DNA of 64,000 bases from Vibrio rarus (GTDB taxonomy: Bacteria; Pseudomonadota; Gammaproteobacteria; Enterobacterales; Vibrionaceae): NCBI RefSeq assembly GCF_024347075.1, contig NZ_AP024900.1, positions 1,178,001 through 1,242,000 of the forward strand, read 5' to 3'. Below, piece after piece: positions 6,001 to 47,101 of the stretch. The notes under the pieces are model-generated. The model saw only the letters and a program-made list of their open reading frames with translations, was not told the origin of the DNA and searched no databases. Each line of letters begins with the position of its first letter. Position 1 is the first letter of the stretch. A program made the position numbers and the translations under genes.

Positions 6001-6182
6001 ACTTCCGGCTTACAGTATTATTACTGAGCCTTGATCTGTCACCTCTGACGATCACCCCAAAGTGACTAACTTCTTTACCTTCTCTCTTTGAGGCAGGTTT
6101 ACGTACCATCTTTTTTGTAATGCCATCAAGTCCATTTCTATGAATGGGCTTAGGCAGATACTACTCCAATTTAGGTAAATCT

Positions 6183-28950: not shown

Positions 28951-29748
28951 TTAGCGCTGTTTAACTTGGTTTGCTTTTACAAATTGCTCATTTAATTTTT
29001 TTGCCAGAGAGAACGAATGTGTATTGGCGCGTGAGAACTCTAATTGATCCACCTGCATAAAGGTGCTGCTTAGGATGTTGTAGTTTGTTCTTTGCGATGG
29101 TTTAGAGGGGTGTTTGTTCATCGGCCCCACTTGATAGAGGTAAAACTCGGGGTTTTCTAATAAAATGCTTTCAATGTTGAACTTAGTGATCTTTTTATTT
29201 GCAGGAGCAATAAGGCGACCACCAGCGGTATTGATAATGCTGTTGACGATACTTTTTTGCCCAGCCACCATGAAAGGGCTTTCTGTCACTTCAAAAACCA
29301 CTGTAGGTTTTTTTGTCAGTGGCTGAATGTGCTGACGGATGGCGCGTAATTGGGCGAGCAGATTCTTTGCCGCTTGTGGTTTATCGACTAATTTTCCCAA
29401 CTGAGTAATTTGGCTAAGAATTTGATCGAGTGTGACCGGATCGTACTTCACCACATCGGCATTTAATTGTTTGGACATATAGTCAGAGAAAAAACGGTTA
29501 GAACTGATGATGACAAGATCAGGGTTTAATCCTTTGATCAACTCTATATTAGGTTTGATGTGAGAGCCAATTTTCAGCGCATTTGCAAAGTCATGGTTAC
29601 TGCGGGTAACGCCGACGACTTTATCTTGCACGCCAAGTTTTATTAAAATGTCTCCAGCAGCAGGGGCGAGTAATACGATTCGGTCATAGGCATTCGCTTC
29701 AGGAACCGAAACTAAAGCTAGCAGTATCAGCAGACACTTTAACATCAT
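28951..29748 (-). CDS. Periplasmic binding protein of a BtuF/FepB-type importer
   Basis: Substrate-binding protein of the cobalamin/siderophore/heme class. From ATG 29748 or 29745 it has a signal peptide (LKCLLILLALVSVPEANA) and then the two-lobed fold with IVLLAPAAGDILIKLGVQDKVVG and LNPDLVIIS as conserved stretches. Upstream GAGGTC is the ribosome site. It overlaps the ATPase gene by about 50 bases, and is the last gene of the B12-riboswitch operon that starts with cbiK. The ligand is probably cobalt-loaded tetrapyrrole, corrinoid or metal chelate; this is inferred from the operon. Confidence 0.8.
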   Translation of the reverse strand: MMLKCLLILLALVSVPEANAYDRIVLLAPAAGDILIKLGVQDKVVGVTRSNHDFANALKIGSHIKPNIELIKGLNPDLVIISSNRFFSDYMSKQLNADVVKYDPVTLDQILSQITQLGKLVDKPQAAKNLLAQLRAIRQHIQPLTKKPTVVFEVTESPFMVAGQKSIVNSIINTAGGRLIAPANKKITKFNIESILLENPEFYLYQVGPMNKHPSKPSQRTNYNILSSTFMQVDQLEFSRANTHSFSLAKKLNEQFVKANQVKQR

Positions 29749-30436
29749 AGACCTCGGAAAGTAGCTGCGGGGTGACTTGGTGTCGAAGGACATCATAGAT
29801 AAGTTTTCCTTGTTTAAAAAATAGGAACCGCTCAAAGTAACGATGTGCCAAATTGATATCATGCACAGAAGTAATCACGGTATGCGGTAGTTGCTGTAGG
29901 TGGTCAAAAATCTCCAGAGTATGGCGTATATCTAAGCTCGAGTTAGGTTCATCTAAATAGACAATAGGCGCGTCTTGGTTTAGCACACGCGCCAGCATTA
30001 CACGTCGCTGTTCACCACCAGAAAGATCCCCATAACGGCGCGTCTGGTACTGGTCAAGATCGAGCAGTTTTAGGCGTTCAAGGGTTTTTTGTTTATCGAG
30101 CGCTTGATAGTTATTGCCACTGAGGTGGATATAGCGGCCTAGCATCGCCACCTCTAAAACAGAGAAGGGGAAGGAGATATCAGAAAACTGCGTCAGCACC
30201 GAAAATCGTCGCGCTCTGGCCTCATGAGACAGGCTTTCTAGAGGCTGTTGCTGATAGGTAATAGCACCCGCAGGCGCTTCAATTAACCCTGTTAGTAAAT
30301 GGATTAGAGTGCTTTTTCCGCAGCCATTTTCACCCATCAGCGCTACTTTTTCTCCTGCCTTGATGGTCAGTGAGGGAACGCTAAGAGAAAACGCTTTTCG
30401 GCGAAACTCCAAGTTGTGGATTGTTACATCAACCAT
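29699..30436 (-). CDS. ATPase of the BtuCDF/FecCDE-type importer
   Basis: 245-residue ABC ATPase with Walker A GENGCGKST (about 36-44), signature LSGGEQRR (about 139), Walker B IVYLDEPNSS and the H-loop TSVHDINLAH. It overlaps the permease gene by 8 bases upstream and the binding-protein gene by about 50 downstream, so the three are translated together. Closest in feel to BtuD/FhuC/HmuV ATPases. Confidence 0.9.
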   Translation of the reverse strand: MVDVTIHNLEFRRKAFSLSVPSLTIKAGEKVALMGENGCGKSTLIHLLTGLIEAPAGAITYQQQPLESLSHEARARRFSVLTQFSDISFPFSVLEVAMLGRYIHLSGNNYQALDKQKTLERLKLLDLDQYQTRRYGDLSGGEQRRVMLARVLNQDAPIVYLDEPNSSLDIRHTLEIFDHLQQLPHTVITSVHDINLAHRYFERFLFFKQGKLIYDVLRHQVTPQLLSEVYDVKVSADTASFSFGS

Positions 30437-31379
30437 TCCAGAAATGCTCCCTTCTGTGTTTTAACAGGTAGAAGAAAAACGCCCCACCGAATACGGCAGT
30501 CATAATGCCAACAGGAAGTTCAGCGCCCCCCGGAATGATGACGCGAGCAATGGTGTCCGAAGCCATTAATAACCATGCCCCAAGTAAGCTAGAATAGAAA
30601 ATATTGTGCTTCATATCACTGCCAAACAGGCTGCGGGAAATATGCGGAACAATCAGACCGACAAAGCCGATAATACCGGAAAAACTGACCGCGACAGAAA
30701 CCAGTAACGTGGCAGCAATAAACACAGTGGAGCGCAACCGGTGGACGTTGATACCTAGGCTCTGTGCCGAGTGCTCATCTAAGGATAAAATATTGAGTTT
30801 CATTGAGTTTCTGTGCAGAAAATACAAAACTCCGACCAATAACACGACGCAGATAGCGAGCCTTTCAAGGGTGACCATAAAAATGCCCCCCATTAACCAA
30901 TAAACAATAGAGTTGAGCGAATCTTCAAAATAGTACTTAGCAAAACTGATGATGGCAGATGCGACAATGTTCATTACCACACCGGCTAAAATCATAGTGA
31001 TGGGGTTAATTCGTCCCTGGGTTAGGGACATGCGATAGACCATAGTTAACCCCGCCAACCCTGTGATAAAGGCCAATAGTGACACACAGTGAACGGGCAT
31101 ACCCAGCGCAATGGCGAGCACAGCGCCTAAGGCGGAAGAAGAGGCCGCGCCAGTGGTAAAACTATCGGCTAATGGATTTTTTAGCGTGAGTTGATAAATG
31201 CTGCCGCTTAATCCTAGCATGGCACCAATGACACAGGAGAAAAGGACTCTTGGGAGCCTCAGTTCTGTGAGAATGTTGTATTCCATTTGTGACATATCAA
31301 AGGGATTGATCCAATGAGGCCCAATGAGCGTTGCCAGTAACGCGCAGCCAATAAACAGCGTTACTAACGCCCACTTCAT
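30429..31379 (-). CDS. FecCD-family permease (BtuC-like)
   Basis: 316-residue permease with about nine to ten membrane helices. Conserved stretches are RLPRVLFSCVIGAMLGLSGSIYQ near the start (quoted in part: LPRVLFSCVIGAMLGL) and FSGIIGFVGLIVPHISR, the coupling helix to the ATPase. The start overlaps the upstream ABC-2 permease stop by 4 bases (ATGA). Together with its ATPase and binding protein it makes a complete vitamin B12/heme/siderophore-type importer. Confidence 0.9.
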   Translation of the reverse strand: MKWALVTLFIGCALLATLIGPHWINPFDMSQMEYNILTELRLPRVLFSCVIGAMLGLSGSIYQLTLKNPLADSFTTGAASSSALGAVLAIALGMPVHCVSLLAFITGLAGLTMVYRMSLTQGRINPITMILAGVVMNIVASAIISFAKYYFEDSLNSIVYWLMGGIFMVTLERLAICVVLLVGVLYFLHRNSMKLNILSLDEHSAQSLGINVHRLRSTVFIAATLLVSVAVSFSGIIGFVGLIVPHISRSLFGSDMKHNIFYSSLLGAWLLMASDTIARVIIPGGAELPVGIMTAVFGGAFFFYLLKHRREHFWNG

Positions 31380-32113
31380 GCTTCGACCTTATACACGATG
31401 CGAGTGGCAATCACGAGTAACGCTAGGTTTAAACAACCTAGTATCGCCAGTGATTGGAGATTAAACGGAGCATCCAACAGAGCCGAACGAATGAGGTCTG
31501 CACTGTATGTGAGTGGTGATAATTTGGCTAAAATTTGAATGAAAGAGGGCATTTGATCCACAGGAAAAAACGTGCCTGATAGAAACATCATCGGAGTGAT
31601 AACAAAGGAGTTCATAGTGGCTTGATCGCGATGATTTTTCATTTTCAGTGACACGATAAAACCAATCAGGGCAAATGAAATCAAATGCATTAACAGCGCT
31701 AGGGCAAACGGAATGGAAAAGTGCAAATGGATACCGCACATCACGCTATAAGCGATCACGACGGCAACTGGGATCAAACCTTTGGTGATGCCATACGCCA
31801 CTTCGCCCACTACGATTTGCCAGCGCTGATTAGGGGAGAGGAGGTACTCTTCAAAGATCTTTAAATAAAAGCGGCTAATATTAATTTCGCTGGCGATATT
31901 GTAGCTATGGTTCATGCTCGACATGGCTAATAGGCCGGGGAGCAAAAAGGTCAGATAATCCATCCCTTGCACCATAGTTCCTTTCCCAACGCCATAGCCA
32001 AATGCCATTAAATATAAAAAGGGTGGGACAGCCGCAGCGAGTGCGACACGTACGATTTTTTTCTTTAATACCGTGCATTCTCGGTAGTAAATGCCAACAA
32101 CACCATCAAGCAT
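31376..32113 (-). CDS. ABC-2 type exporter permease
   Basis: 245 residues, six hydrophobic segments, of the NodJ/DrrB class: GYGVGKGTMVQGMDYLTFLLPG and FVITPMMFLSGTFFPVDQMP (shortened motifs: LTFLLPGLLAMSS, MMFLSGTFFPVDQMP) are typical. The start overlaps the ATPase stop by 8 bases. Members of this class export lipids, sugars or drugs. Finding one inside a B12-controlled operon next to a chelatase is unusual. The transported compound is not evident from sequence. Confidence 0.88.
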   Translation of the reverse strand: MLDGVVGIYYRECTVLKKKIVRVALAAAVPPFLYLMAFGYGVGKGTMVQGMDYLTFLLPGLLAMSSMNHSYNIASEINISRFYLKIFEEYLLSPNQRWQIVVGEVAYGITKGLIPVAVVIAYSVMCGIHLHFSIPFALALLMHLISFALIGFIVSLKMKNHRDQATMNSFVITPMMFLSGTFFPVDQMPSFIQILAKLSPLTYSADLIRSALLDAPFNLQSLAILGCLNLALLVIATRIVYKVEA

Positions 32114-32993
32114 TTTTTATTAACCTCTTGCCAGTAAAATGAAGAAACACATCTTCTAATGTGGTATCCCGTATGCGGCCACTGATAGAGTCGTGACTGA
32201 TGTGAGTTAACCGTTGCAAAGCGTGCTCTTTGTTACTGAAAAACTCGTGTTGGACCTCTTCACTTTCAATTTCAAGAACGAATGGCCCTAGATGCTGTTT
32301 CAAGCTAGCGGCGGTGCCTTGGGTGATGATTTTGCCACTATCGATGAAGATAACACGATCCGATAATCGCTCCGCTTCTTCAATGTAATGGGTGGTTAGG
32401 AAAATGGTACAGTCACGTTCTTTGTTGATTTTTTGTAGAAATGCCCACATTTTTCGTCGGCTAAGGGGGTCTAAGCCCACCGTTGGTTCATCCAAAAATA
32501 AGATTTTGGGCTGGTGCATTAATGCGCGAGCAATCACCAGTTTGCGTTTCATACCACCAGATAGCTTGGATGCAGGCTTATGTTTGTGTTCAGTTAGGCC
32601 TGCAAATTCAAGGCTTTCATCTATGGCCCTTTGCAAAGCCTTGCCACGCATTTTATAGAGCAAGCCGTGAACTTTGAGGTTTTCAACGGCATTGAGCTCT
32701 TTGTCCACATTATTATGTTGTGGCACCACACCAATCAAACGTCTTAAATCATGTCGATTAGAGCGGTTCTCTATGTTGTCATAAAGCACCGTTCCGGAAT
32801 CAGGTTCGAGCAGCCCAGTCATCATTTTAATGGTGGTGGTTTTACCCGCGCCATTGGGGCCAAGAAAGGCACACACTTCGCCGCGTTGAATGGAAAAACT
32901 CATCTCATCAACGGCTTTGCGCTTAGCAAAATGTCGGGTCAATGACCGCACTTCGATAACGGGTTTCGTCGAGTGATGCTGTTGTAAAATCAT
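32106..32993 (-). CDS. ATPase of the ABC-2 type exporter
   Basis: 295 residues of the NodI/DrrA/CcmA type: Walker A GPNGAGKTTT, signature SKLSGGMKRKL, Walker B ILFLDEPTVGLDP, switch His in TTHYIEEAE, and the extended C-terminal part usual for DrrA-like exporters. It begins 46 bases after the cbiK stop and overlaps the permease gene, so both follow cbiK on the riboswitch-controlled message. Confidence 0.9.
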   Translation of the reverse strand: MILQQHHSTKPVIEVRSLTRHFAKRKAVDEMSFSIQRGEVCAFLGPNGAGKTTTIKMMTGLLEPDSGTVLYDNIENRSNRHDLRRLIGVVPQHNNVDKELNAVENLKVHGLLYKMRGKALQRAIDESLEFAGLTEHKHKPASKLSGGMKRKLVIARALMHQPKILFLDEPTVGLDPLSRRKMWAFLQKINKERDCTIFLTTHYIEEAERLSDRVIFIDSGKIITQGTAASLKQHLGPFVLEIESEEVQHEFFSNKEHALQRLTHISHDSISGRIRDTTLEDVFLHFTGKRLIKNA

Positions 32994-33039
32994 GCTGTTC
33001 TGCTCTATTTACTTTGATTAAGTGATTAGCGAAAAATGC

Positions 33040-34065
33040 CTATTTCAGCACGATACCCGCTTCTTTAGCCGCATCATTAAGGTGCTGCAGGTAAATGTGT
33101 TGTATCGAATCATTACGTCCTAAGCCTTTTAGCACAGGGATGACCTTGATATTTTGTTTGGTCAGCATCATTTTCCATGAGTCATCCTCATCACCGGCCA
33201 TATCGTTATTGGCATGATCCCCGGCAACCACCATCAGCGGTTTAACCATAACGCTTTTGATGGAGTCGTGTTTTAAACGCGCCATAAGGCTATCGAAGTT
33301 AGGATAGCCTTCCACTAAGCCAATATAGATTTTTACGTCTGGATAACGTTGATTTAAGATTTCTTGAAGCTCGTAATACAGGCCGGTAGAAAGATGATGG
33401 TTGCCGTGGCCCATATACACTAAAGCGGTATTGTTTTTCTTGGCAAGCGCCACATCGCTGGCTAATGCATCCGCTAAAGTATGCAGATCTTTACGGTATG
33501 GGTGTTGCGCACCCCAAGTGCCCATTAATGGGCGGCCAAGAGCCACATTATGAAAAGGTTTCCATTTTGCTTTTACCGTTTGAATAGACGCTAGGGCGTT
33601 TACCGTTCCTTTAAGGTCGATATACTCTTCACCATGTGACAGTAAGGTGGTTTGCACAACGATGTTTTTATAACCTGCGCTTTGCAAATCGTTCATTGTC
33701 CCCATGACATTTTGTACCTGATAAAAATTTTTAGGGACTTCAGGGTGTTGTTGTTGATATTGCTTATCCGTTGCACGCTTATGCCAAATTTTACGAATAA
33801 TATTTGAGGTAAACGCAAAGCGTACAGGGGTGTTCGGGTAGGCTTTTTGCACTTGTTGTTGAATGCCAATCAGTGAGCCAATAGCGGTGTTGTAAGTGGT
33901 ACCAAAGGCGGCGAGGACGATAGCGGATTTTTCGGGTTTCGCCGTTTTGCTAGAAGAATGCGCTGTTGCCGTTAGAGGTAGGCTGGCCAACAGTCCGAGA
34001 AAAAGGATCTTGCGTGGCACTTTAGTCAGCGTGAGGCTATTTTTCAATAATGTTGAAATTAACAT
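33040..34065 (-). CDS. cbiK: Exported sirohydrochlorin cobaltochelatase CbiK (periplasmic type)
   Basis: Inserts cobalt into sirohydrochlorin, the entry to the anaerobic corrin route. After an N-terminal signal peptide (basic KVPRK, hydrophobic ILFLGLLASLPLTATA, cut before HSSS), the mature part follows CbiK from SAIVLAAFGTTY to the end, with the metal-binding His in LLSHGEEY and in MGHGNHH. Cytoplasmic CbiK has no such leader; periplasmic CbiK forms are known from Desulfovibrio. The start is uncertain: I use ATG 34065 (341 residues); ATG 34107 and 34146 would lengthen the leader. It is the first gene after a cobalamin riboswitch and leads five transporter genes. Confidence 0.88.
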   Translation of the reverse strand: MLISTLLKNSLTLTKVPRKILFLGLLASLPLTATAHSSSKTAKPEKSAIVLAAFGTTYNTAIGSLIGIQQQVQKAYPNTPVRFAFTSNIIRKIWHKRATDKQYQQQHPEVPKNFYQVQNVMGTMNDLQSAGYKNIVVQTTLLSHGEEYIDLKGTVNALASIQTVKAKWKPFHNVALGRPLMGTWGAQHPYRKDLHTLADALASDVALAKKNNTALVYMGHGNHHLSTGLYYELQEILNQRYPDVKIYIGLVEGYPNFDSLMARLKHDSIKSVMVKPLMVVAGDHANNDMAGDEDDSWKMMLTKQNIKVIPVLKGLGRNDSIQHIYLQHLNDAAKEAGIVLK

Positions 34066-34227
34066 AATAGGTATCCGTAAGTTCCGATACAACGTGCTAG
34101 GTTGCATCAAATCATCACTCAGATCATAAAGAGAGAGCGAAGGCATAATGGTGGCTTACGGGAGTAAATAACAAAGGTTTCGTCATCAATAGAGTCATTA
34201 ACCACGAGTAACCCGCTCGCCTTTGGT

Positions 34228-34415
34228 GAACTGGATATTCCCAGTTCATTGAACCATTCAGGCAGGTATCCTGGCTTTTGGGTCAACATATGCAGAACGC
34301 CTTCCCAGATAATCTCCAGTGGACTCATGTCTGCTAACTCGCCAAATACAGTTGCGGGTACAGCTCAAGCTTTTAACTTGATTCCCTTTTAAGTGCAATT
34401 CAATGAATGTGACAC
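34228..34415 (-). promoter_or_regulatory. Cobalamin riboswitch controlling cbiK and the transporter genes
   Basis: Read on the minus strand, it holds the core AAAAGGGAAT, CCCGCAACTGTA, AGTCCACTGG, GGGAAGGCG and the B12 box AGCCAGGATACCTGCC (34261-34276). P1 pairs TTCATTGAA (34399-34407) with TTCAATGAA (34245-34253). Just after it, GAACTGG/CCAGTTC-type pairing (34228-34247) shares three bases with the P1 3' strand, giving two competing folds. No T tract follows, so control may be at translation or by processing. A 69-codon open frame across it is not a gene. Confidence 0.92.
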
Positions 34416-34610
34416 CTGAATGGTAAGCATATTGCCTTAAAAAATCTTATGAATAGTGATAAAAATCAATAAAGAGAGATTTTTGTTTCATTAAACAAGG
34501 TGTGGCTAGAAATTAATATGCAATGAATTTCTATTCAATTCCGCTATTGGTGACTTTTAAGGGGAGAGTGTGTTTAAATCGAGCTATCGCAAAGCTGGCG
34601 CGCAGTTATC

Positions 34611-34624: not shown

Positions 34625-34654
34625 TCATACCTGTCGCTCTCTATGAGAGACTTC

Positions 34655-34775
34655 ATGAATATTTAGTGTATTAAGTGAATCAGGTGTCATTCCTGAACTG
34701 TCCCCGCAACTGTGAGCGAACATGCAGTATACCTGTATAAATATTCGTAAGTCAGATCCTGCTAAATATCCAACA
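34655..34775 (+). promoter_or_regulatory. Cobalamin riboswitch controlling the cbi/cob operon
   Basis: Core elements in order: GAATCAGGTG, the conserved TGTCCCCGCAACTGTGAGCG (34700-34719 region), and a B12-box-like GTCAGATCCTGC (34751-34762). P1 forms between ATATTTAG (34659-34666) and CTAAATAT (34762-34769). It is shorter and more divergent than the leftward riboswitch. A terminator-like stem follows directly. Confidence 0.88.
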
Positions 34776-34849
34776 ATCAAACAGCCTGAGCGGGATCACT
34801 CAGTGTCATTGTCTTTCAATTTCAGCCGATCTGACTGTTTGATGTTTTT
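34776..34849 (+). terminator. Expression platform of the cbi riboswitch
   Basis: ATCAAACAG (34776-34784) pairs with CTGTTTGAT (34835-34843), which is followed by GTTTTTATT. An inner hairpin CTGAG...CTCAG sits inside. It fits a ligand-controlled transcription terminator before cbiD. Confidence 0.65.
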
Positions 34850-34870: not shown

Positions 34871-36088
34871 GTGGGTAAATTAAAACGTTCGAAACACAAT
34901 AAAGAGTTGCGCTGGGGTTACACAACCGGTGCCTGTGCGGCAGCGGCGGCCAGCGCCGCTGTGCGAATGCTTATTTCCGATAGCCCTTTCTCTAAGATTG
35001 AAATTAGTCTGCCTAATAAAGAGCTCGTGACATTTCCATTGGCACGACTAGAAAAACACCTAGATAACCATGCGGTTTCAATACTTGCCGGTGTGGTTAA
35101 AGACGGCGGCGATGATCCCGATTGTACCCACGGCTTAGAAATTCAGTGCAGGGCAAAATGGAGCACTACCGCGGGGATCCACCTTACAGGCGGGCAAGGA
35201 ATTGCAACGGTGACACTGCCAGGTTTAGAACTCCCTGTTGGTGAGCCTGCCATCAACCCCGTACCGAGAGCCAATATTATACAGATGGTGCAACGAGAGT
35301 TGGATTTATCGACACCGTCATGGTCAACGGGTGCGTCGATAGAAGTGCGAGGTGTTGAGTTAACTATCTTAGCCCCCGGAGGGGAAGTGGCCGCCAAGGA
35401 GACCATTAGTGAGCGGCTCGGGCTTATAGGCGGTATTTCAATTTTAGGGACTCGCGGTACCGTGAAGCCTTTTTCTACTTCCGCTTATGCCGCCTCCGTT
35501 AGGCAATCCATTCAAGTGGCAAAAACTAACGGTTTACAGCATGTGGTATTAACGACAGGCAGTCGCTCAGAAAAATCCGCTATAGAGCAGTGGCCTGCAC
35601 TGAGCCGGTTGGCGTTTGTGCAAGCGGGAGACTTTATGGGGGTGGGGTTGCGCGCGGCAAAACGATACCAAATACAGCGTGTTTCGCTGGTGGTAATGAT
35701 AGGTAAATTAGGCAAATTGATCTCTGGGCGCATGATGACTCATGTATCAGGGCATGCCATCGATTTTGCACAGTTGAGTCACTTAGCCCAGCAATCCAAC
35801 ATGCCCGCCCCTTTATGCCAAGACATAGCCAAAGCCAATACCGGACGGCACGTCTTAGATTTAGTGAGAGATCATCAACCCGAGTGCTTTTTGCAGCGTT
35901 TGTGCCAAGAGGCGCAACATCATGCACACCGTTATGTGGCGAATGAGTTGGATATTGAAGTGGTGCTTATCGATTTTGATGGCAAGCCATTAGCTGTGAG
36001 TTGTGGTGCCGGCGTGATAGGGCACTCAAGAGATCATACTCAGCAATCCACTGACCCAATGTTAGGTAAAAAAATATGGATACAATGA
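34871..36088 (+). CDS. cbiD: Cobalt-precorrin-5B C1-methyltransferase
   Basis: CbiD methylates C1 of the macrocycle in the anaerobic route. 405 residues; the N-terminus RWGYTTGACAAAAASAA (about 14-30) is the family signature, with LPNKELVTFPL and later GAGVIGHSRDHT. Start GTG 34871 after TGGAG. It is the first gene of a rightward run of 13 cobalamin genes, and overlaps cbiC by 13 bases. Confidence 0.96.
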   Translation: MGKLKRSKHNKELRWGYTTGACAAAAASAAVRMLISDSPFSKIEISLPNKELVTFPLARLEKHLDNHAVSILAGVVKDGGDDPDCTHGLEIQCRAKWSTTAGIHLTGGQGIATVTLPGLELPVGEPAINPVPRANIIQMVQRELDLSTPSWSTGASIEVRGVELTILAPGGEVAAKETISERLGLIGGISILGTRGTVKPFSTSAYAASVRQSIQVAKTNGLQHVVLTTGSRSEKSAIEQWPALSRLAFVQAGDFMGVGLRAAKRYQIQRVSLVVMIGKLGKLISGRMMTHVSGHAIDFAQLSHLAQQSNMPAPLCQDIAKANTGRHVLDLVRDHQPECFLQRLCQEAQHHAHRYVANELDIEVVLIDFDGKPLAVSCGAGVIGHSRDHTQQSTDPMLGKKIWIQ

Positions 36089-36729
36089 AACAAATGACCC
36101 AGCAAGGGCAGGTTATTGAGAACGATTCTTTCTCGATTATTGATCAGGAAATTCAGCAATTTCACGGAGGTCACAATTTAGATGATGCACAGTGGCCAGT
36201 GGTACGCCGTGCGATTCATACCACAGGTGACTTTGAATTTGCCAAGCTGTTTCGATTTAGTGAAGGTGCTGTTGCGGCTGGAATAGAAGCGTTAAAAAGC
36301 GGCTGCAACATTATTAGTGACGTCACTATGATCACCAGTGGTCTGAGTGCACAAAGGTTGTCGGTGTATAATAACCAAGCGCAATGCTTTATTAGTGATA
36401 AAGCGGTGATCGCAATCGCTAAGCAGAAAGGGGAAACACGAGCCATTTGGTCTATGCGCAGCGCTCGAGATCTTGGTTTATTAGATGGGGCGATTATCGG
36501 TATCGGTAATGCGCCAACGGCGTTGTTTGAAGTATTGAGAATGGTCGAAGCGCAGGAAATTAAGCCCGCTCTTATTGTGGGTATTCCTGTGGGGTTTGTA
36601 AAAGCAGAAGAATCTAAACGCGCCCTTATTGAGCAGAGCAATGTCCCCTATATTGCCAGTATTGGCCGCAAGGGGGGAAGCCCAATCGTGGTCTCTACCA
36701 TCCACGCGCTTCTCTATCAGACGGTATAA
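36076..36729 (+). CDS. cbiC: Cobalt-precorrin-8 methylmutase
   Basis: Moves the C11 methyl to C12 to give cobyrinate. 217 residues; conserved RRAIHTTGDFEF with the catalytic His near residue 48, and GNAPTALFEVLRM plus VGIPVGFVKAEESK typical of CbiC/CobH. Start ATG 36076 (AGGT upstream) overlaps cbiD; an alternative ATG at 36085 overlaps only the stop. Confidence 0.95.
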   Translation: MDTMKQMTQQGQVIENDSFSIIDQEIQQFHGGHNLDDAQWPVVRRAIHTTGDFEFAKLFRFSEGAVAAGIEALKSGCNIISDVTMITSGLSAQRLSVYNNQAQCFISDKAVIAIAKQKGETRAIWSMRSARDLGLLDGAIIGIGNAPTALFEVLRMVEAQEIKPALIVGIPVGFVKAEESKRALIEQSNVPYIASIGRKGGSPIVVSTIHALLYQTV

Positions 36730-36733
36730 GCCC

Positions 36734-37987
36734 ATGGCCAATATTACCGTAGTCGGTGTTAGCGAAGATGGCTGCATGAGTTTAAGCAGTCGAGCGGTTA
36801 ATGCTGTGTCTAAGGCTCGAGTGGTGGCAGGACATTCACGCCATATGGCGTGGTTTCCCCAATTTTCCGGTAATTTTCTTGATATGAGCCAAGGGTTTAG
36901 TGCTTGGCTTAATGAGGTGATTGATCAAGCAGAGGAAGGGGATGTCGTGATCCTCGCCTCTGGAGACCCTTTATTTTTTGGCATTGGAGCCACTTTACTA
37001 AAAAGATACCCCTTAGATGAGGTGCTTTTTATTCCAAGTCAAAGCTCAGCGCAACTGGCGTTTGCTCGCTTAGGGCTCAGTTGGTCAGGGGCGCAATTTT
37101 TATCCTGTCATGGACGGCAACGAGCAGGAATGGTGGCGCAGATGCAATCAGGTGATCTGTTTGCGATTCTCACTGACTCGACAAATACGCCACAAAACGT
37201 GGCTAAGCACATGCAAGAGTTTAATGAAACGGGCTGGAAGCTGACGGTTTGTGAACAGCTTGGGGCAGTGTCTGAAAATATCACCTCGTTTACAGTGCAA
37301 GCATTGGTCAATTGCGATACCCCTTTTGACACGCTCAACATTATTATCGCCCAAAGACAAGCTCCCGCATTGTGGGGTGGGCATGGGCAATTTGCATGTG
37401 ACGATAGCTTTGTTATGCGCATGCCTCAAAAGGGCCTCATTACCAAGCAAGCGGTGCGCCACTTAGCATTAACCCATTTGCGTATTCAATCCCATGACAT
37501 TGTGTGGGACATAGGGGCAGGCTCCGGCTCTATTTCTATTGAGTCGGGCAAATTTGCCACCCAAGGCAAAGTGTACGCTGTGGAATGTAACCCTAGTTGC
37601 TTTGAACATATCAATGCCAACATGCGCAGTCATGGGACTGATAATGTACAACTTATTGCTAAATCTGCCCCCGATGCCCTTGTGGATTTGCCCTCTCCAG
37701 ACGCCGTGTTTATTGGCGGTAGTCGCGGGGCGATGCACGATATCCTCACTTTGGTATGGGATCGCCTAAACCTCGGTGGTCGCCTAGTGGTCGCGGCGGT
37801 CACTATGGATACCGTGGTGGATATCTATCAGTGGGCAAAGAGTAAAAACCTTAATTTTGATGCGCAATTGGTGAATATTTCGCATACCCAACCATTGGCG
37901 CAATATCTTCGCTATCAAGCGCAGAATCCCATCCATCTTTTTTCAATTGTTAAATCTACAGACCCTTCGGGAGAGAATAATGAGTAA
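36734..37987 (+). CDS. cbiET: Fused CbiE-CbiT: precorrin-6B C5,15-methyltransferase and C12-decarboxylase
   Basis: 417 residues. The N-terminal CbiE half (about 1-205) is a class III tetrapyrrole methyltransferase (VVGVSEDGCMSLS, LASGDPLFFGIGATL). The C-terminal CbiT half (about 215-415) is a Rossmann methyltransferase with VWDIGAGSGSISIE as SAM motif. The fusion equals CobL of the aerobic route. Start ATG 36734, four bases after cbiC; a longer frame begins inside cbiC and is not used. It overlaps cbiL by 8 bases. Confidence 0.94.
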   Translation: MANITVVGVSEDGCMSLSSRAVNAVSKARVVAGHSRHMAWFPQFSGNFLDMSQGFSAWLNEVIDQAEEGDVVILASGDPLFFGIGATLLKRYPLDEVLFIPSQSSAQLAFARLGLSWSGAQFLSCHGRQRAGMVAQMQSGDLFAILTDSTNTPQNVAKHMQEFNETGWKLTVCEQLGAVSENITSFTVQALVNCDTPFDTLNIIIAQRQAPALWGGHGQFACDDSFVMRMPQKGLITKQAVRHLALTHLRIQSHDIVWDIGAGSGSISIESGKFATQGKVYAVECNPSCFEHINANMRSHGTDNVQLIAKSAPDALVDLPSPDAVFIGGSRGAMHDILTLVWDRLNLGGRLVVAAVTMDTVVDIYQWAKSKNLNFDAQLVNISHTQPLAQYLRYQAQNPIHLFSIVKSTDPSGENNE

Positions 37988-38780
37988 CGGTAAATTCGGT
38001 CAGCTGTACGCTGTTGGTGTCGGTACAGGTGATAGTGAATTATTAACCCTGAAAGCGGTGCGACTCATTTTGCAGGCTGACGTGGTGGCCATTCCGGAGA
38101 AAACGAAGGGAAAAGCCGATTCGTTTGCTTGGCAAATAGTGACAGGCGCAGTGGCTGAAAATGAGATTGCAGCAGAGCAATGCTTTTTGCATTTCCCTAT
38201 GACCCGAGATGCAAGTATTAATATTCCTGCGTGGCGCGCGGCAGCATTGACGATTTTACAGCGCCTTGAGCAAGACAAATCTGTGGTATTTGTTACCGAA
38301 GGAGACCCTTCGGTATTTAGTACATGGGCGTATATCCAAGAAGAGTTGCATGAAATTGCGCCACAAATAGAACCTATTATCGTTCCTGGCGTGACCTCTA
38401 TTACCGCTGTACCGGCAGCCACTAAAATTCCGTTAGCCGATGGCATGGAGCGCTTTTGTGTGGTGCCAGCAACGTATGGTATTGACAGTTTGGATAGCTT
38501 GGTAAAAGAGTTTGATACGATAATGCTGATCAAAGCAGGACGTATGATCCCACAATTATCGGCAAAATTGAAACAGCTAGGCCTCAGCAATAGTGCCACA
38601 TACGTTTCCTATGCCAGTACCGAGCAACAACAAATTTTTCATGATCTTGACCAAGTACCAGAAGAGCATCGCTACTTCTCTATGGTGCAATTGTCTATTC
38701 GTGGTCGCCGAGGGGTATTGCGCGGCGCGCAGTTAAGCTCTCCACAACTAAGCTCTCCACAGCATGGAGAGGTGCAGTAA
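37980..38780 (+). CDS. cbiL: Cobalt-factor II C20-methyltransferase
   Basis: 266-residue tetrapyrrole methyltransferase: YAVGVGTGDSELLTLKAVR at the start, VVFVTEGDPSVFSTW and VPGVTSITAVPAA as SAM-site motifs. Start ATG 37980 with GGGAGAG. It overlaps the upstream cbiET and touches the cbiG start at base 38780. The C-terminal tail contains a short tandem repeat (QLSSPQLSSPQ) from a duplicated 14-base unit, which looks recent and harmless. Confidence 0.94.
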   Translation: MSNGKFGQLYAVGVGTGDSELLTLKAVRLILQADVVAIPEKTKGKADSFAWQIVTGAVAENEIAAEQCFLHFPMTRDASINIPAWRAAALTILQRLEQDKSVVFVTEGDPSVFSTWAYIQEELHEIAPQIEPIIVPGVTSITAVPAATKIPLADGMERFCVVPATYGIDSLDSLVKEFDTIMLIKAGRMIPQLSAKLKQLGLSNSATYVSYASTEQQQIFHDLDQVPEEHRYFSMVQLSIRGRRGVLRGAQLSSPQLSSPQHGEVQ

Positions 38781-40447
38781 TGAAACTCGCAATATATGTG
38801 ATTACGGTGGCGGGGGAAAAGCAAGCGGCCAAGCTGAAACAAGCCATGCCCTTTGCCCATGTATTTGGTACCGCAAACGCCATCCAAGCATCACCTAATG
38901 CCCGCTTATTAACCTTGCCATTATCCAACTTTGTAGCGGATAGATTTAATGACTATGACGCACATGTTTTTATCTGTGCCAGTGGCATTGTCAGTCGCAT
39001 TATCGGCCCTTTACTGAAAGATAAAACCTGTGATCCAGCGGTAGTGTGTATGGATGAGCAGGGCAAATTTGCCATATCTATGCTTTCCGGTCACCGAGGG
39101 GGCGCGAATCAATTAACCCAAAGAGTGGCGCATATCGTTAAAGGGACACCGGTCATTACCACAGCATCCGATGTGTCGGAAACCGTCTCTGCGGATATGC
39201 TGGGCGCGCCATTTGGTTGGGTATTAGATCCTATTTCTGAGCCCTCCATTACCAAAGTATCCGCGGCTATCGTAAATGAGGCTCCGGTGATTATTGTGCA
39301 ACAGGCAGGTGATAAAAATTGGTGGAAATACGACAAACGTATGCCAGCGAGTATTATCAGCCACACCAGTTTACAGGGTATAGAGAGCGAACATTATCAA
39401 GGTGCCATTTTGGTGACGGATGAGCTGAACTGCGATCTCACCGATTGGCAAAATAAAGTGGTGCTTTGGCGTCCTAAATCCCTTGTGTTAGGGATAGGGT
39501 GTGACAGAAATACCCCCCTTTGTGTACTTAAATCGGGGCTGCAAGCTTTTAGTCAACAATTTAACCTGAGCTTAGATTCTGTTGACGCTTTTGCCAGTAT
39601 TGACCTAAAGGCTGATGAAATAGGGTTACAGCAATTATCGCAAGAAAAACAGTGGCCATTCATCACCTATGCGCCAGAGCAATTGGACGCAGTGGAGGGG
39701 ATTGAACACCCATCGGAGTATGTAAAAAAGGTCACAGGCAGTAATTCTGTGGCAGAAGCGGCCGCATTAACATTGAGCCGTATCCATACCTTACTGGTGC
39801 CTAAGTGGGTATTTAAGCAAGACGGTTACAACATGACCATAGCCTGCTGTCGTAAGTCATTTACTGAGCCACTTATAAGACATAAACGCAAAAACTGGTT
39901 TGGTGAAAAAAAACACGGCAGTGATTCATGTCACGGTGTTTACGATGTACAACCTCAAACAAGGGACGTGCAGACAGAGGTAACCGCTCAACAAATCAAA
40001 GTGAACGCTTATGGCAATGAAGTGGTTGCGGGCTATCAGTGTAAGCCTAAGCACGTAGATTTAGACCGGCCGATGCTGTTTTACAAACATCACATATTGA
40101 TTTGTGAGGGGAAACGTTGCGTCAAACAGGGCAGTAAAAATTTAGCCCATGATCTACGCGCTATGTTGAAACAACAAGGGCTAGCCAGTGGTCCTAAGCG
40201 CATTAAAATTAGTCGCACTATGTGCGTGGGGGCGTGTCGAAATCGCTCAACACTGGTGATCTATGAAAAAAATGCTCACGCTGAGCGCTCTGTCAATAAC
40301 GCCATATGGTTACGCGGTGTTGAAGCGTTTTCCGAGCAGCAGTGGCAGGCGTTGTTTCATGCCTTAGCCAATAATCAACCGGTTATAGATGTGGTAGACA
40401 GCCAATATCTCGCGCCCATACACGACATGGATGGTGGCCTTTTATGA
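38780..40447 (+). CDS. cbiG: CbiG (cobalt-precorrin-5A hydrolase) fused to a thioredoxin-like ferredoxin domain
   Basis: CbiG opens the delta-lactone and releases acetaldehyde. Residues 1-365 form CbiG: N-terminal and central domain (CASGIVSRIIGPLLKDK, MLSGHRGGANQLT, ITTASDVSET), then the C-terminal domain (LVLGIGCDRNTP, ASIDLKADEIGL, GSNSVAEAAAL). Residues about 430-540 add a separate domain with four spaced cysteines (ICEGKRCVKQG, then MCVGACRN), the pattern of a [2Fe-2S] thioredoxin-like ferredoxin. At 555 residues it is about 200 longer than plain CbiG. A similar free ferredoxin-like protein (CbiW) is described in Bacillus megaterium. Confidence 0.9.
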   Translation: MKLAIYVITVAGEKQAAKLKQAMPFAHVFGTANAIQASPNARLLTLPLSNFVADRFNDYDAHVFICASGIVSRIIGPLLKDKTCDPAVVCMDEQGKFAISMLSGHRGGANQLTQRVAHIVKGTPVITTASDVSETVSADMLGAPFGWVLDPISEPSITKVSAAIVNEAPVIIVQQAGDKNWWKYDKRMPASIISHTSLQGIESEHYQGAILVTDELNCDLTDWQNKVVLWRPKSLVLGIGCDRNTPLCVLKSGLQAFSQQFNLSLDSVDAFASIDLKADEIGLQQLSQEKQWPFITYAPEQLDAVEGIEHPSEYVKKVTGSNSVAEAAALTLSRIHTLLVPKWVFKQDGYNMTIACCRKSFTEPLIRHKRKNWFGEKKHGSDSCHGVYDVQPQTRDVQTEVTAQQIKVNAYGNEVVAGYQCKPKHVDLDRPMLFYKHHILICEGKRCVKQGSKNLAHDLRAMLKQQGLASGPKRIKISRTMCVGACRNRSTLVIYEKNAHAERSVNNAIWLRGVEAFSEQQWQALFHALANNQPVIDVVDSQYLAPIHDMDGGLL

Positions 40448-40477
40448 TGTTCAAAATCACTTTCTTTATGGAGGCAA

Positions 40478-41326
40478 ATGGTGGCTAAATTATCTTTGGT
40501 GGGATTAGGTCCGGGAAGTGTTGATCTCATGTCGATTCGCGCCCAACAAACCATACAAAACGCGGATGTGATAGTGGGGTATGCTCTGTACGTAAAACTT
40601 ATTGCGTCACTGATTAATGAGCAGACCTTAGTGAGAACCGGAATGACCAAAGAGTGGCAACGAGCTGATGCCGCTATTCAGTTGGTTGAACAAGGGAAAA
40701 ACGTGGCCTTAGTGTGCTCTGGCGATGCAGGAATGTATGCCATGGCCCCTTTAGTGTTTGAAATGTTATCTTCTAAACAGATTAACATTGAGATAGAAAC
40801 CATTCCCGGCATTACCGCCGCTAATGCGTGCGCCTCTTTAGTGGGCGCTCCATTAGGTCACGACAGTTGTACGATTTCGTTATCCGATTTATTAACCCCT
40901 TGGGAAGTGATCGTGCGCCGTATTGAGGCGGCGGCGATGGCCGATTTTGCCATCACATTTTACAATCCAAGATCAAGAAAACGTCAGCAACATATTGTTA
41001 CCGCGCAACAAATTATATTGAAATACCGCTCAGCCAATACCCCTGTGGCCGTTGTCAATGCAGCTTATAGAGAAGAGCAAAGTGTACAAATATCCACCCT
41101 TGAACACTTTACTGAGCTGGAGTTTGGAATGAATGCTGCGGTCATTGTGGGTAATGAAAGTAGCTACCGATTTGATGACTGGATAGTGACCCCGCGAGGC
41201 TATAAAAACAAATACATTCTCGAAGATGGAGAAACGCGTGCAGGGCAAACCCCAGGACGCGCATTGGAATCCTCTGCCATTGACGCAGAAGTCGAGCAGG
41301 AAACAACGAATAAGGAAGTATTATGA
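40478..41326 (+). CDS. cbiH: Cobalt-factor III C17-methyltransferase
   Basis: Ring-contraction methyltransferase, 282 residues. LVGLGPGSVDLMSIRAQQ, ALVCSGDAGMYAMAP and IPGITAANACASLVGAPLGHD are the family motifs. TFYNPRSRKR in the second half is typical of CbiH/CobJ. Start ATG 40478 after TATGGAGG, 30 bases after cbiG. The C-terminal acidic tail of about 25 residues is not conserved. It overlaps cbiF by 4 bases (ATGA). Confidence 0.95.
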   Translation: MVAKLSLVGLGPGSVDLMSIRAQQTIQNADVIVGYALYVKLIASLINEQTLVRTGMTKEWQRADAAIQLVEQGKNVALVCSGDAGMYAMAPLVFEMLSSKQINIEIETIPGITAANACASLVGAPLGHDSCTISLSDLLTPWEVIVRRIEAAAMADFAITFYNPRSRKRQQHIVTAQQIILKYRSANTPVAVVNAAYREEQSVQISTLEHFTELEFGMNAAVIVGNESSYRFDDWIVTPRGYKNKYILEDGETRAGQTPGRALESSAIDAEVEQETTNKEVL

Positions 41327-42141
41327 CGGTTTATTTTATTGGTGCAGGACCCGGCGACCCAGATCTCATTACGGTAAAAGGGGCCAAATTGGTTGAGCGT
41401 TGTCCTGTTATTCTTTATGCGGGCAGTTTAGTGCCAAAAGCGGTTATTGAGCGCGCCCAGCCTCAGGCTAAAGTGTATGACTCAGCGAGCATGGATTTGG
41501 ATGAAATAACCCAAGTGTATACCGATGCGCATGCTCAAGGGCAAGATGTAGCTCGGGTGCAGACGGGGGATTTATCTATTTACTCGTCTCTTGCCGAGCA
41601 GACGCGTCGCCTCAATGCATTAGGCATTGATTGGCAAGTGGTTCCGGGGGTCTCTTCGTTTCAAGCATCAGCGGCGGCGTTAGGTCAAGAACTGACACTC
41701 CCTGAGCAGTGTCAGACCATTATATTGTCCCGCGCTTCTGGGCGTACTCCGGTGCCAGATAAAGAGAATCTAAAATCACTGGCTCAGCATGAAGCCACAC
41801 TATGTCTATTTCTTAGCGCCACTTTGATAAGAAAAGTGGTGCGTGAGCTGAGTGATGTTTATGCGCAAAATTGGCCTGTGTGTGTGGTAGAAAAAGCCTC
41901 ACACCCTGAGCAACGTATTATTCGTGGTACTTTAGCGGATATCGCTGATAAGATGCACGCCGCAAATATTCGTTCAACGGCCATGATCATTGTCAGTAAG
42001 GTCTTTGCTATAGACGATTTTGTGGACTCAAAACTGTATGATCCAAGCTTTACACATGCCTGTCGTAAAGGGAAAGTGTTGGATGCGGCCATGGACTCTG
42101 TAAAAGTAGCAACTGTTGTAGAGGCGTCGTCCCATGAGTAA
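41323..42141 (+). CDS. cbiF: Cobalt-precorrin-4 C11-methyltransferase
   Basis: 272-residue tetrapyrrole methyltransferase: YFIGAGPGDPDLITVKGAK, VARVQTGDLSIYSSLAEQ, VPGVSSFQASAAALGQELTLP, and SRASGRTPVPDKE, which marks CbiF/CobM. Overlaps cbiH by 4 and cobA by 8 bases. Confidence 0.96.
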   Translation: MTVYFIGAGPGDPDLITVKGAKLVERCPVILYAGSLVPKAVIERAQPQAKVYDSASMDLDEITQVYTDAHAQGQDVARVQTGDLSIYSSLAEQTRRLNALGIDWQVVPGVSSFQASAAALGQELTLPEQCQTIILSRASGRTPVPDKENLKSLAQHEATLCLFLSATLIRKVVRELSDVYAQNWPVCVVEKASHPEQRIIRGTLADIADKMHAANIRSTAMIIVSKVFAIDDFVDSKLYDPSFTHACRKGKVLDAAMDSVKVATVVEASSHE

Positions 42142-43507
42142 CGGTAAAGTGTATTTAATTGGAGCGGGACCGGGAGATCCGGGACTACTTACTTGTCGAG
42201 CCAAAGAGCTGTTAAGCAGCTGTGATGTGGTGTGCTATGACAAGTTGGTCAGTGCGGCTATTTTGTCCATTGTGCCTGATCACGTGCAGTTGCATCAAGT
42301 GGGTTACCGTGGTTACCAAGGGGTTCATATTGAATACGGTATGCACCCAGATGTCACCGAATTTGCCTTGGCGGGCAAACGAGTGGCGCGATTGAAAGCC
42401 GGTGATCCGTGCATTTTTGGCCGCACTACCGAAGAGTGCCGTGATCTGCAACAACATCAAATCCCTTATGAAATCGTCCCCGGTATTACCGCTGCATTAG
42501 GGGCCGCCTCTTATTCAGGTTTTCCGTTAACCAGTGGCGGCATTGCTTCTAGTGTCACTTTTGTCAGCGGACATAAAAACACGCAGGCACTGGCATCATG
42601 GAGTCGTCTTGGTCAGGCGGGGGGCACATTAGTGCTGTATATGGGCGCAAAAAAATTAGCCCAGCATACACAAACCTTAATTGAACATGGTCGCAGTGCG
42701 CACACCCCCATCGCCTTAATTAGCTCAGCAACCAGCGCAGATCATCAGTGTATTACAGGGACACTGGCTTCTATTGCTGAAAAAGTCGCGCAGCAGCAAT
42801 TTATTGGGCCGGCGCTCGTTATTGTGGGTGAGGTGGTCTCTCAAGGAAAAGAGTTAGATTGGCGACACCGCTTGCCATTGACGGGCGCGAGAATATTACT
42901 GTGTGGCCACAGTGCAGAGGTGACAGGGTGGCGAAACAGCGGTGCGGAGGTTATCTGCATCGAAAATAATAAGACACACTCATTGCTTGATGAGGAAGAT
43001 TTAGAGTATTTGACTGCAGTTCCCGAGCTTGCCTTTAGCGATATGCCATCATTTAACTTGTGGTGGCGCGCCGTGCAACATTATCAATGGGATATTAGAA
43101 AATTTGCCATGCCCATGGGCAGTGACAACCCCTTGGTGTGCTCGGCATTAAGAGACATAGGTATTCAAGCTATGCCCCTTTCAGCAAATGCTTTAACCTT
43201 AACCCTTAATGAACAACAAGCGTTTGGTGAGAATAACCAATATTATCTTGTTGGCCACGTAGACAGTCAGCCTTTAGGCTATTCGATACCCGTGGTGGAT
43301 TGGTTATTAGTCGAGGATATTTCTATTTTACACACCATTATCACGCATCACCCTGAAGCCATTGCCAGGGCGCAACTGGTGCCCCTTAATGACACAGTAC
43401 GTCAATGGGCAATACAAAACGGCTACCTTCAACAGAACAGCACTTTTCCTGATTTTATGCACGGTTCAACGATAAAGCACTGTCGAGACGGTATTGATGT
43501 TAGCTAG
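42134..43507 (+). CDS. cobA: Uroporphyrinogen-III C-methyltransferase with HemD-like C-terminal extension
   Basis: SUMT makes precorrin-2 from uroporphyrinogen III by methylation at C2 and C7. The first 245 residues are a complete SUMT: LIGAGPGDPGLLTCRAKE, ARLKAGDPCIFGRTTEE, VPGITAALGAASYSGFPLT, LYMGAKKL. The remaining 210 residues (LTGARILLCGHSAEVTGWR onwards) have the size and start pattern of uroporphyrinogen III synthase, but very weak conservation, so the domain may be degenerate or non-catalytic. Cob-operon SUMTs usually have about 260 residues. It overlaps cbiF and cbiB. Confidence 0.9.
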   Translation: MSNGKVYLIGAGPGDPGLLTCRAKELLSSCDVVCYDKLVSAAILSIVPDHVQLHQVGYRGYQGVHIEYGMHPDVTEFALAGKRVARLKAGDPCIFGRTTEECRDLQQHQIPYEIVPGITAALGAASYSGFPLTSGGIASSVTFVSGHKNTQALASWSRLGQAGGTLVLYMGAKKLAQHTQTLIEHGRSAHTPIALISSATSADHQCITGTLASIAEKVAQQQFIGPALVIVGEVVSQGKELDWRHRLPLTGARILLCGHSAEVTGWRNSGAEVICIENNKTHSLLDEEDLEYLTAVPELAFSDMPSFNLWWRAVQHYQWDIRKFAMPMGSDNPLVCSALRDIGIQAMPLSANALTLTLNEQQAFGENNQYYLVGHVDSQPLGYSIPVVDWLLVEDISILHTIITHHPEAIARAQLVPLNDTVRQWAIQNGYLQQNSTFPDFMHGSTIKHCRDGIDVS

Positions 43508-44480: not shown

Positions 44481-44482
44481 CA

Positions 44483-45553: not shown

Positions 45554-45621
45554 GCTAACTAATGCCGGTGTAAACCCAATATATCTAAGTCATCATAATT
45601 CGGATTCTAAGGGATAGTAAA

Positions 45622-47088: not shown

Positions 47089-47101
47089 GGAGCACAAGTA
47101 A

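What the first reader, a model, noticed from the sequence alone, without database searches (positions are those of the whole stretch)
28951..34415. B12-riboswitch operon pairing an exported CbiK with both an ABC exporter and a BtuFCD-like importer
Seen: one cobalamin riboswitch precedes CbiK with a signal peptide, then an ABC-2 ATPase and permease, then a FecCD permease, ATPase and binding protein, with the five transporter genes overlapping one another. Known: periplasmic CbiK exists in Desulfovibrio, and CbiK acts early in the anaerobic corrin route. Inference: sirohydrochlorin (or cobalt) may be moved out, cobalt inserted in the periplasm, and the product taken back in. Alternatively the chelatase serves scavenging of external tetrapyrroles. 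The full six-gene set as a co-regulated unit is not one I know as a described system.
Basis: partly seen in the sequence, partly recalled or inferred. Interest (0 to 1): 0.82.

Follow-up and report, generated by a model that had tools for sequence, protein, structure and literature searches.

The report
Exported cobalt-inserting enzyme with transporters
A marine bacterium appears to insert cobalt into its vitamin B12 precursor outside the inner membrane and to carry the cobalt-loaded ring back in, because its only cobalt-inserting enzyme of the usual kind has an export signal and sits in one gene set with an exporter and an importer.

Summary
A B12 riboswitch precedes CbiK with a signal peptide, an ABC-2 ATPase and permease, and a FecCD permease, ATPase and binding protein. 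The set is conserved: all 10 exported-CbiK copies in 8 of 329 Vibrionaceae genomes have the six genes (one with a split FecCD) and a riboswitch, and Desulfuromonadales mostly add cbiL, the next enzyme. CbiK-family hits occur in exactly the 47 Vibrionaceae genomes with cbiD; in 7 of the 8, only the exported type was found, with no separate CbiX. Beside cbi genes, a signal peptide on CbiK goes with a neighbouring FecCD, CbtX or ABC-2 permease (71 of 75 rows) and its absence with none (42 of 44); in about six of seven phylogenetically independent comparisons both change together, never oppositely. Best reading (0.48): sirohydrochlorin is exported, receives cobalt outside the cytoplasm and returns as cobalt-sirohydrochlorin. 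Biochemistry is not shown. A CysG-like protein that might insert cobalt inside is present, and cobalamin import by the same importer is not excluded. The cbiK-btuCDF linkage is in print as B12 uptake; the ABC-2 pair, the signal-peptide correlation and the shuttle were not found in nine searches of open-licence papers.

The parts
34244..34434 (-). Cobalamin riboswitch in front of the six genes
   Evidence: Rfam RF00174, 101.8 bits, full length
33040..34065 (-). cbiK with signal peptide (341 aa; ORF can be read from 34146); cleavage ATA|HSSS guessed by eye
   Evidence: PF06180 236 bits; solved relatives 2xvx, 9b86 FetB, 1qgo; MGHG and GDHA histidines and GEE glutamates invariant in 20 sequences; start coordinate
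32106..32993 (-). ABC-2 exporter ATPase (DrrA/NodI-like)
   Evidence: PF00005 126 bits; below the cut-off of all 25 NCBIfam rows shown of 188, best RbbA 336 and DrrA 273 bits
31376..32113 (-). ABC-2 exporter permease
   Evidence: PF01061 90 bits; no solved relative at E 0.001
30429..31379 (-). FecCD-type importer permease (BtuC-like)
   Evidence: PF01032 266 bits; BtuC models 210 and 201 bits, below cut-offs 461 and 334
29699..30436 (-). Importer ATPase
   Evidence: PF00005 102 bits; heme ABC ATPase model best, 188 bits against cut-off 261
28951..29748 (-). Substrate-binding protein (start chosen at 29748 by comparison with relatives; ORF can be read from 29862)
   Evidence: PF01497 77 bits; model mean pLDDT 92; 12 positions basic in at least 85% of 26 rows
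34647..34780 (+). Second, divergent cobalamin riboswitch before the cbi/cob operon
   Evidence: RF00174, 45.2 bits
34871..49068 (+). cbi/cob operon: cbiD, cbiC, cbiET, cbiL, cbiG with ferredoxin-like tail, cbiH, cbiF, cobA, cbiB, cobD, cbiP, cbiA, cobC; no gene between cbiG and cbiH
   Evidence: ORFs; cbiG, cobA, cbiL and cbiD by family search, the others named from sequence by eye

Best explanation
The six genes most likely form an extracytoplasmic cobalt-insertion module for anaerobic B12 synthesis, switched off by the end product. Sirohydrochlorin made in the cytoplasm is pumped to the periplasm by the ABC-2 pair (inferred). There the exported CbiK inserts Co(II) (location and active site supported by sequence; activity inferred). 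The binding protein captures the octa-anionic cobalt-sirohydrochlorin and the FecCD-type importer returns it (inferred), where cytoplasmic CbiL methylates it (established step). The cell's own ring would thus serve as a cobalt-gathering ligand, so that cobalt enters already complexed.
For: (1) PF06180 and CbiD (PF01888) each ring at E 0.001 in the same 47 of 329 Vibrionaceae genomes. (2) The exported type (10 copies, 8 genomes) always has the six genes (FecCD split into two frames in one copy, L144) and a riboswitch (10 of 10). (3) In 7 of 8 all PF06180 hits are of this type; a CbiX search rings in 1 of these 8, on the CbiK itself. (4) The cytoplasmic type C chelatase usually lies between cbiG and cbiH (not in L158 and G567); window, L146, L149 and L178-L180 have no gene there. 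(5) Of 13 Desulfuromonadales loci with the six genes in order, 11 are followed by cbiL, the enzyme that uses the product. Of 16 such genomes with the cassette in any arrangement, 12 have no other PF06180 hit and 15 have CbiD. (6) Signal peptide and neighbouring transporter beside cbi genes: 71 rows with both, 42 with neither, 4 and 2 exceptions; 7 independent contrasts on the tree, same direction in 5.6-5.8 on average, opposite 0, median p 0.031, range 0.031-0.125. (7) A prediction noted before fetching held in all 16 scorable of 20 new loci: 15 signal peptide with CbtX, 1 neither; several of the 15 are close relatives. (8) Conserved basic residues in the binding protein suit a ring with eight carboxylates (PMC7018833, passages). 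(9) Three related long-type CbiK without signal peptide inside cbi operons have no cassette within 9 kb (L238, L241, L245). (10) The CysG dimeriser domain rings in 8 of 8 type B Vibrionaceae but in 0 of 9 Desulfuromonadales tested, so that rival route is not evident in the latter.
Confidence: 0.48

Rival explanations
1. Ordinary B12 regulon: the FecCD importer is the cell's corrinoid importer (BtuFCD role), CbiK is exported for some minor reason, and the ABC-2 pair is an unrelated passenger. Cobalt insertion is done by the CysG-like protein.
For: The linkage cbiK-btuCDF is read as B12 or corrinoid transport in print (PMC545781; PMC7755780; passages). BtuC models score best for the permease. 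No other FecCD system of the genome passes a BtuC cut-off. A CysG-like protein is present.
Against: Does not explain why transporter genes follow the signal peptide of CbiK, why CbtX does so too, or why the exported type stands in for the cytoplasmic chelatase in cbiD genomes. The conserved basic residues of the binding protein are not what neutral cobalamin would need.
Confidence: 0.23
2. Cobalt scavenging: exported CbiK is a periplasmic cobalt-binding protein that hands Co(II), free or on another ligand, to the importer; insertion takes place inside.
For: CbtX was proposed as a cobalt transporter from clustering with cbiK (PMC545781). CbiM and CbiQ are linked in 7 of 23 type C genomes and at none of the 13 type B stretches examined, as if the cassette replaced a cobalt importer.
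Against: Leaves no class II chelatase found inside. Catalytic residues are kept. A metal importer should not be dropped when the chelatase is cytoplasmic, yet L251, L256 and L276 lack CbtX. FecCD importers usually carry metal complexes (recalled).
Confidence: 0.15
3. Heme or tetrapyrrole scavenging like IhtB/FetB of Porphyromonas: the exported chelatase removes or exchanges metal of external tetrapyrroles and the importer takes the product.
For: FetB is the second-best solved relative; the binding protein is nearest to heme binders IsdE and ShuT by sequence. IhtB is called a putative ferrochelatase/reverse ferrochelatase (PMC13227078, passages).
Against: B12 riboswitch at 10 of 10 Vibrionaceae copies; restriction to cbiD genomes there; the genome has its own HutBCD-like heme system.
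Confidence: 0.1

Closest known systems
cbiK-cbiL and btuCDF of Desulfovibrio under one B12 element (PMC545781, passages read)
   Same: Riboswitch, cbiK, FecCD-type importer and cbiL in one regulated set; in two Pseudodesulfovibrio loci fetched here the first CbiK has a signal peptide
   Different: No ABC-2 pair seen in those two loci, which keep a second CbiK without signal peptide; the paper reads the importer as vitamin B12 transport
Periplasmic CbiK of Desulfovibrio vulgaris (2xvx; the table calls it only putative chelatase, identity with CbiKP is recalled)
   Same: Best solved relative by sequence (140 bits); exported class II chelatase (recalled)
   Different: There a cytoplasmic CbiK exists too (recalled); here none was found
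IhtB/FetB of Porphyromonas gingivalis
   Same: CbiK homologue (9b86, 106 bits), exported and with a FecCD importer in its operon (recalled)
   Different: Heme uptake context, lipoprotein, no B12 riboswitch (recalled)
Sulfurospirillum cbiK-btuC-btuD-btuF in the cobamide operon (PMC7755780, passages read)
   Same: Same order of chelatase and importer genes inside a cobamide operon
   Different: No ABC-2 pair among the listed neighbouring locus tags; signal peptide not examined here
CbtX (COG3366) beside cbiK in delta-proteobacteria (PMC545781, passages read)
   Same: A membrane transporter gene next to cbiK; here 20 of 20 Desulfuromonadales short-type loci beside CbtX have a signal peptide on CbiK
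   Different: A single Gate-domain protein instead of two ABC transporters; it was predicted to be a cobalt transporter

Membership tests
CbiK class II sirohydrochlorin cobaltochelatase | PF06180 domain over the whole protein | tested here: met
   236 bits over profile positions 2-261 of 262
CbiK class II sirohydrochlorin cobaltochelatase | Two catalytic histidines in the C-terminal half (His145, His207 of Salmonella) and a conserved glutamate | tested here: met
   MGHG and GDHA histidines aligned with Salmonella CbiK 1qgo and invariant in 20 sequences; numbering from PMC7689651 (passages); the role of the glutamate is recalled
CbiK class II sirohydrochlorin cobaltochelatase | NCBIfam equivalog score | tested here: not met
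   SiroCoChCbiK 158 bits against cut-off 400: in the family, outside the curated equivalog
CbiK class II sirohydrochlorin cobaltochelatase | Cobalt insertion activity | not testable with these tools
   needs an enzyme assay
Exported (periplasmic) CbiK | Cleavable signal peptide | tested here: met
   Own hydrophobicity script and inspection; no dedicated predictor; location itself untested
BtuFCD vitamin B12 importer | FecCD permease, ATPase and binding protein of the B12/heme/siderophore class | tested here: met
BtuFCD vitamin B12 importer | BtuC/BtuF equivalog cut-offs | tested here: not met
   BtuC 210 and 201 bits against 461 and 334; BtuF 45.5 against 234
BtuFCD vitamin B12 importer | Binds cobalamin | not testable with these tools
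   fold matches to heme and B12 binders are nearly tied
NodIJ/DrrAB ABC-2 exporters | ABC-2 ATPase plus ABC2_membrane permease | tested here: met
NodIJ/DrrAB ABC-2 exporters | NodI/NodJ or DrrA/DrrB cut-offs | tested here: not met
   DrrA 273 against 312, NodI 217 against 521, DrrB 95.5 against 223, NodJ 77 against 207 bits
IhtB/FetB heme-acquisition chelatase | Outer-membrane heme receptor gene in the operon | tested here: not met
   none among the six genes; that the known operon has one is recalled
IhtB/FetB heme-acquisition chelatase | Iron or heme regulation | not tested
   a B12 riboswitch is present; Fur-type sites were not searched

The most novel reading that the evidence does not exclude
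Cobalt insertion outside the cytoplasm is a widespread, unrecognised layout of anaerobic B12 synthesis. Exported CbiK (periplasmic in Gram-negatives, lipoprotein in Clostridia) loads the cell's own sirohydrochlorin, which acts as a cobalt-gathering ligand; FecCD importers and CbtX return cobalt-sirohydrochlorin rather than cobalamin or bare cobalt, and the ABC-2 pair is a dedicated sirohydrochlorin exporter. Cells with a cytoplasmic CbiK import cobalt ion instead.
Probability: 0.37. Interest if true: 0.9.

Novelty: new variant of a known kind. Interest (0 to 1): 0.74.

Why it matters
If true, a central step of B12 synthesis crosses the membrane twice, and many importers annotated as B12 or cobalt transporters would be carriers of a biosynthetic intermediate. 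It would explain why cbiK-bearing delta-proteobacteria lacked known cobalt transporters (PMC545781, passages) and why periplasmic CbiK exists at all. It is directly testable by localisation, single-gene removals and ligand binding.

Tried and rejected

Binding-protein charge: 12 positions are basic in at least 85% of 26 rows. I left out three (4 in the signal sequence, 23, 123) and point to nine (49, 63, 65, 85, 185, 186, 189, 220, 240) that lie outside helices; that they face the cleft is inferred from the strand order, as model coordinates were not at hand.

Literature: nine searches of a library of open-licence PMC papers and passages of eight papers showed no description of the ABC-2 pair with cbiK, of the signal-peptide correlation or of the shuttle. 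Subscription papers are not held, among them the Desulfovibrio CbiK papers that I only recall.

In 9 of 14 type A loci a CbiO-like ATPase near cbiL was seen as a weak ABC hit (54-65 bits); CbiM-, CbiN- and CbiQ-like frames were named by eye in two of them (L298, L304).

Counting choices: my FecCD threshold was lowered from 100 to 60 bits after I saw Clostridia permeases at 66-89 bits, so the 71-of-75 count is partly post hoc; the CbtX prediction is not. The 42 rows with neither feature include 36 from Vibrionaceae types A and C, which are close kin; hence the independent-contrast test. Rows dropped: L290, L099, L308 and both L060 rows as fragments, short contigs or unclear starts; L034-L039 as duplicates of other stretches; L107, L161, L249 and L289 for lack of the start motif. 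Genome G567 enters twice (L160, L320). Signal labels of types A and C were set to none by the orthologous start; L116, L120 and L317 had hydrophobic upstream extensions.
Full report
What is there. On the minus strand, a cobalamin riboswitch (34434-34244) is followed by cbiK, an ABC-2 ATPase and permease, and a FecCD permease, ATPase and binding protein, ending at 28951. CbiK is 46 nt from the next gene and the five transporter genes overlap one another. CbiK carries a classical signal sequence ahead of the chelatase domain. Its two catalytic histidines and the neighbouring glutamates are kept. A second, divergent riboswitch at 34647-34780 precedes the cbi/cob operon, and a third lies before a BtuB-like receptor elsewhere (receptor named by eye). 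So the three riboswitches that the genome search found control synthesis, outer-membrane uptake and this cassette.

It is a conserved unit. Of 329 Vibrionaceae genomes, 47 have CbiD and the same 47 have a PF06180 hit at E 0.001. By score, sequence and place they fall into type A (Salmonella-like, no signal, 14 genomes), type B (exported, 8 genomes, 10 copies), type C (no signal, most often between cbiG and cbiH, 23 genomes) and two with weak hits only (G327, G576). All 10 type B copies have the six genes in order (in L144, a second copy in G400, FecCD is split into two frames) and a riboswitch upstream. Four of them (L142, L145, L148, L150) are not next to cbi genes. In seven of the eight type B genomes all PF06180 hits are of the exported type (two copies each in G400 and G566); the eighth, G455, also has a type C gene of 236 aa where 10 other fetched type C genes have 273-305 aa. 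A CbiX search rings in one of the eight, and there on the cassette CbiK itself. So the exported enzyme stands where a cytoplasmic chelatase is otherwise found.

Wider family. In 136 genomes of the order of Malonomonas, 92 have PF06180 hits, many weak. I fetched 37 stretches and 20 more. In 13 the six genes stand in order, and in 11 of these cbiL, which uses the product of CbiK, follows; L225 shows none and L230 ends at the contig edge. L255 has the cassette with an exported CbiK of another subfamily; L232 and L236 have it divergent from cbiK; L235 has it upstream of cbiL-cobA-cbiK. These are 16 genomes; 15 have CbiD and 12 have no other PF06180 hit. Other lineages have a form without ABC-2 (L043, L044, L048, L049, L051, L053; the binding protein of L048 was not recognised). 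The best 120 of 493 database hits to the ABC-2 permease include Vibrio, Photobacterium, Agarivorans, Shewanella, Ferrimonas, Malonomonas, Desulfuromonas, Geopsychrobacter, Deferribacter and Geovibrio. Several share their longest-contig length with CbiK hits (1999375, 1632795, 3341365, 3373463, 568721, 4839879, 4241730), which suits a permease that travels with the exported CbiK.

Signal peptide and transporter go together. In short-type loci inside cbi operons I saw that CbiK with a signal peptide was followed by a Gate-domain protein (CbtX; PF07670 above its cut-off in 2 of 3 tested, just below in the third), and CbiK without one was not. I wrote the prediction down, fetched 20 further loci and scored them (signal scores): 15 had both, 1 had neither, 0 contradicted, 4 were not scored (L287 and L288 outside cbi operons with neither feature, L289 cut, L290 a fragment). 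Several of the 15 are near-identical relatives. Over 175 rows, beside cbi genes: 71 with signal peptide and a FecCD, CbtX or ABC-2 permease within 3 kb, 4 with signal only (L040, L067, L079, L235; in L235 the cassette lies further upstream in the operon), 2 with transporter only (the second, signal-less CbiK of L049 and L053), 42 with neither; 2 unscorable for short flanks and 1 without a label are set aside. Away from cbi genes the link is weaker: 19 with both, 16 signal only, 4 neither, 14 unscored or unlabelled. On a quick CbiK tree the signal label changes 8 times; in 7 independent contrasts on well-supported branches the transporter changes the same way in 5.6-5.8 on average and never the other way (median p 0.031, range 0.031-0.125). 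In Clostridia such as L064, L072 and L084 CbiK has a lipoprotein signal and stands beside FecCD importer genes in cbi operons (Pfam was run on the L064 binding protein only).

Reading. A cobalt-ion importer would be needed most when the chelatase is inside; the opposite pattern, transporter present when the chelatase is outside, suggests that the transported thing is the tetrapyrrole. The binding protein keeps a set of basic residues; nine of twelve lie outside helices and away from the N-terminus, though three have basic counterparts in IsdE or V. cholerae BtuF. Sirohydrochlorin has eight carboxylates (PMC7018833, passages). In Vibrionaceae, cbiM and cbiQ lie by the operon or the chelatase in 7 of 23 type C genomes, a CbiO-like ATPase lies near cbiL in 9 of 14 type A loci, and none is seen at the 13 type B stretches; a whole-genome test was not possible. 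Rodionov and colleagues noted that delta-proteobacteria with cbiK lacked known cobalt transporters (PMC545781, passages).

Limits. Nothing here shows enzyme location, activity or transport. A CysG-like protein is in the genome and CysG can insert cobalt; the dimeriser domain was found in 8 of 8 type B Vibrionaceae and 0 of 9 Desulfuromonadales. The binding protein's fold is about equally near heme and B12 binders. The genome has three FecCD systems besides one weak hit: the cassette, one with weak siderophore-binder resemblance and a HutBCD-like heme system; cobalamin import by the cassette is therefore not excluded. Five type C genomes (six with weaker hits in G531) have a FecCD permease by the cbi operon with a cytoplasmic chelatase. 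Four of the 16 Desulfuromonadales cassette genomes have a second PF06180 hit: weak and near cbiD in G698, G700 and G701, and in G626 a signal-less fragment beside a FecCD hit (L290).

Origin. The ten Vibrionaceae type B proteins form one group (98*), inside a group of 27 (99*) with Desulfuromonadales proteins, most of them of six-gene loci and three without signal peptide, and one Deferribacteraceae MAG protein; this suits transfer of the cassette into Vibrionaceae (inference, root not tested).

Noticed in passing
L250, L252-L254, L257, L271-L275, L277-L286 (short-type CbiK): CbtX, predicted in print to be a cobalt transporter, lies beside CbiK where CbiK has a signal peptide and not in the three short-type loci without one (L251, L256, L276); it may carry the tetrapyrrole instead.
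   Followed up: partly
L064, L072, L084: Clostridia carry CbiK with a lipoprotein signal next to FecCD importer genes in cbi operons.
   Followed up: partly
L155 9549-10259 (G455): Type C chelatase gene of 236 aa against 273-305 aa in ten other type C loci, in a genome that also has the exported cassette: may be a decaying gene.
   Followed up: no
L144 7171-8120 (second copy in G400): FecCD is split into two frames and CbiD is interrupted: this second cassette copy may be decaying.
   Followed up: no
window 38780-40447: CbiG fused to a thioredoxin-like ferredoxin tail (PF01257 just below its cut-off).
   Followed up: no
window 5828-5969: DABA-DC-AT RNA (103.7 bits) before a 976-aa ORF (6144-9074) that reads by eye as a fused aminotransferase/decarboxylase.
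   Followed up: no
L039 6400-6565 and 6653-6843: Two cobalamin riboswitches in tandem before the six-gene cassette of Malonomonas.
   Followed up: no
L147 14500-16386: CbiD and CbiC fused in one frame.
   Followed up: no
window 34871-49068: No cbiJ was recognised by eye in the cob operon; it was not searched elsewhere in the genome.
   Followed up: no
L151, L305-L307, L321: Another binding protein-FecCD-ATPase set upstream of cbiD in type C Vibrionaceae with a cytoplasmic chelatase.
   Followed up: partly
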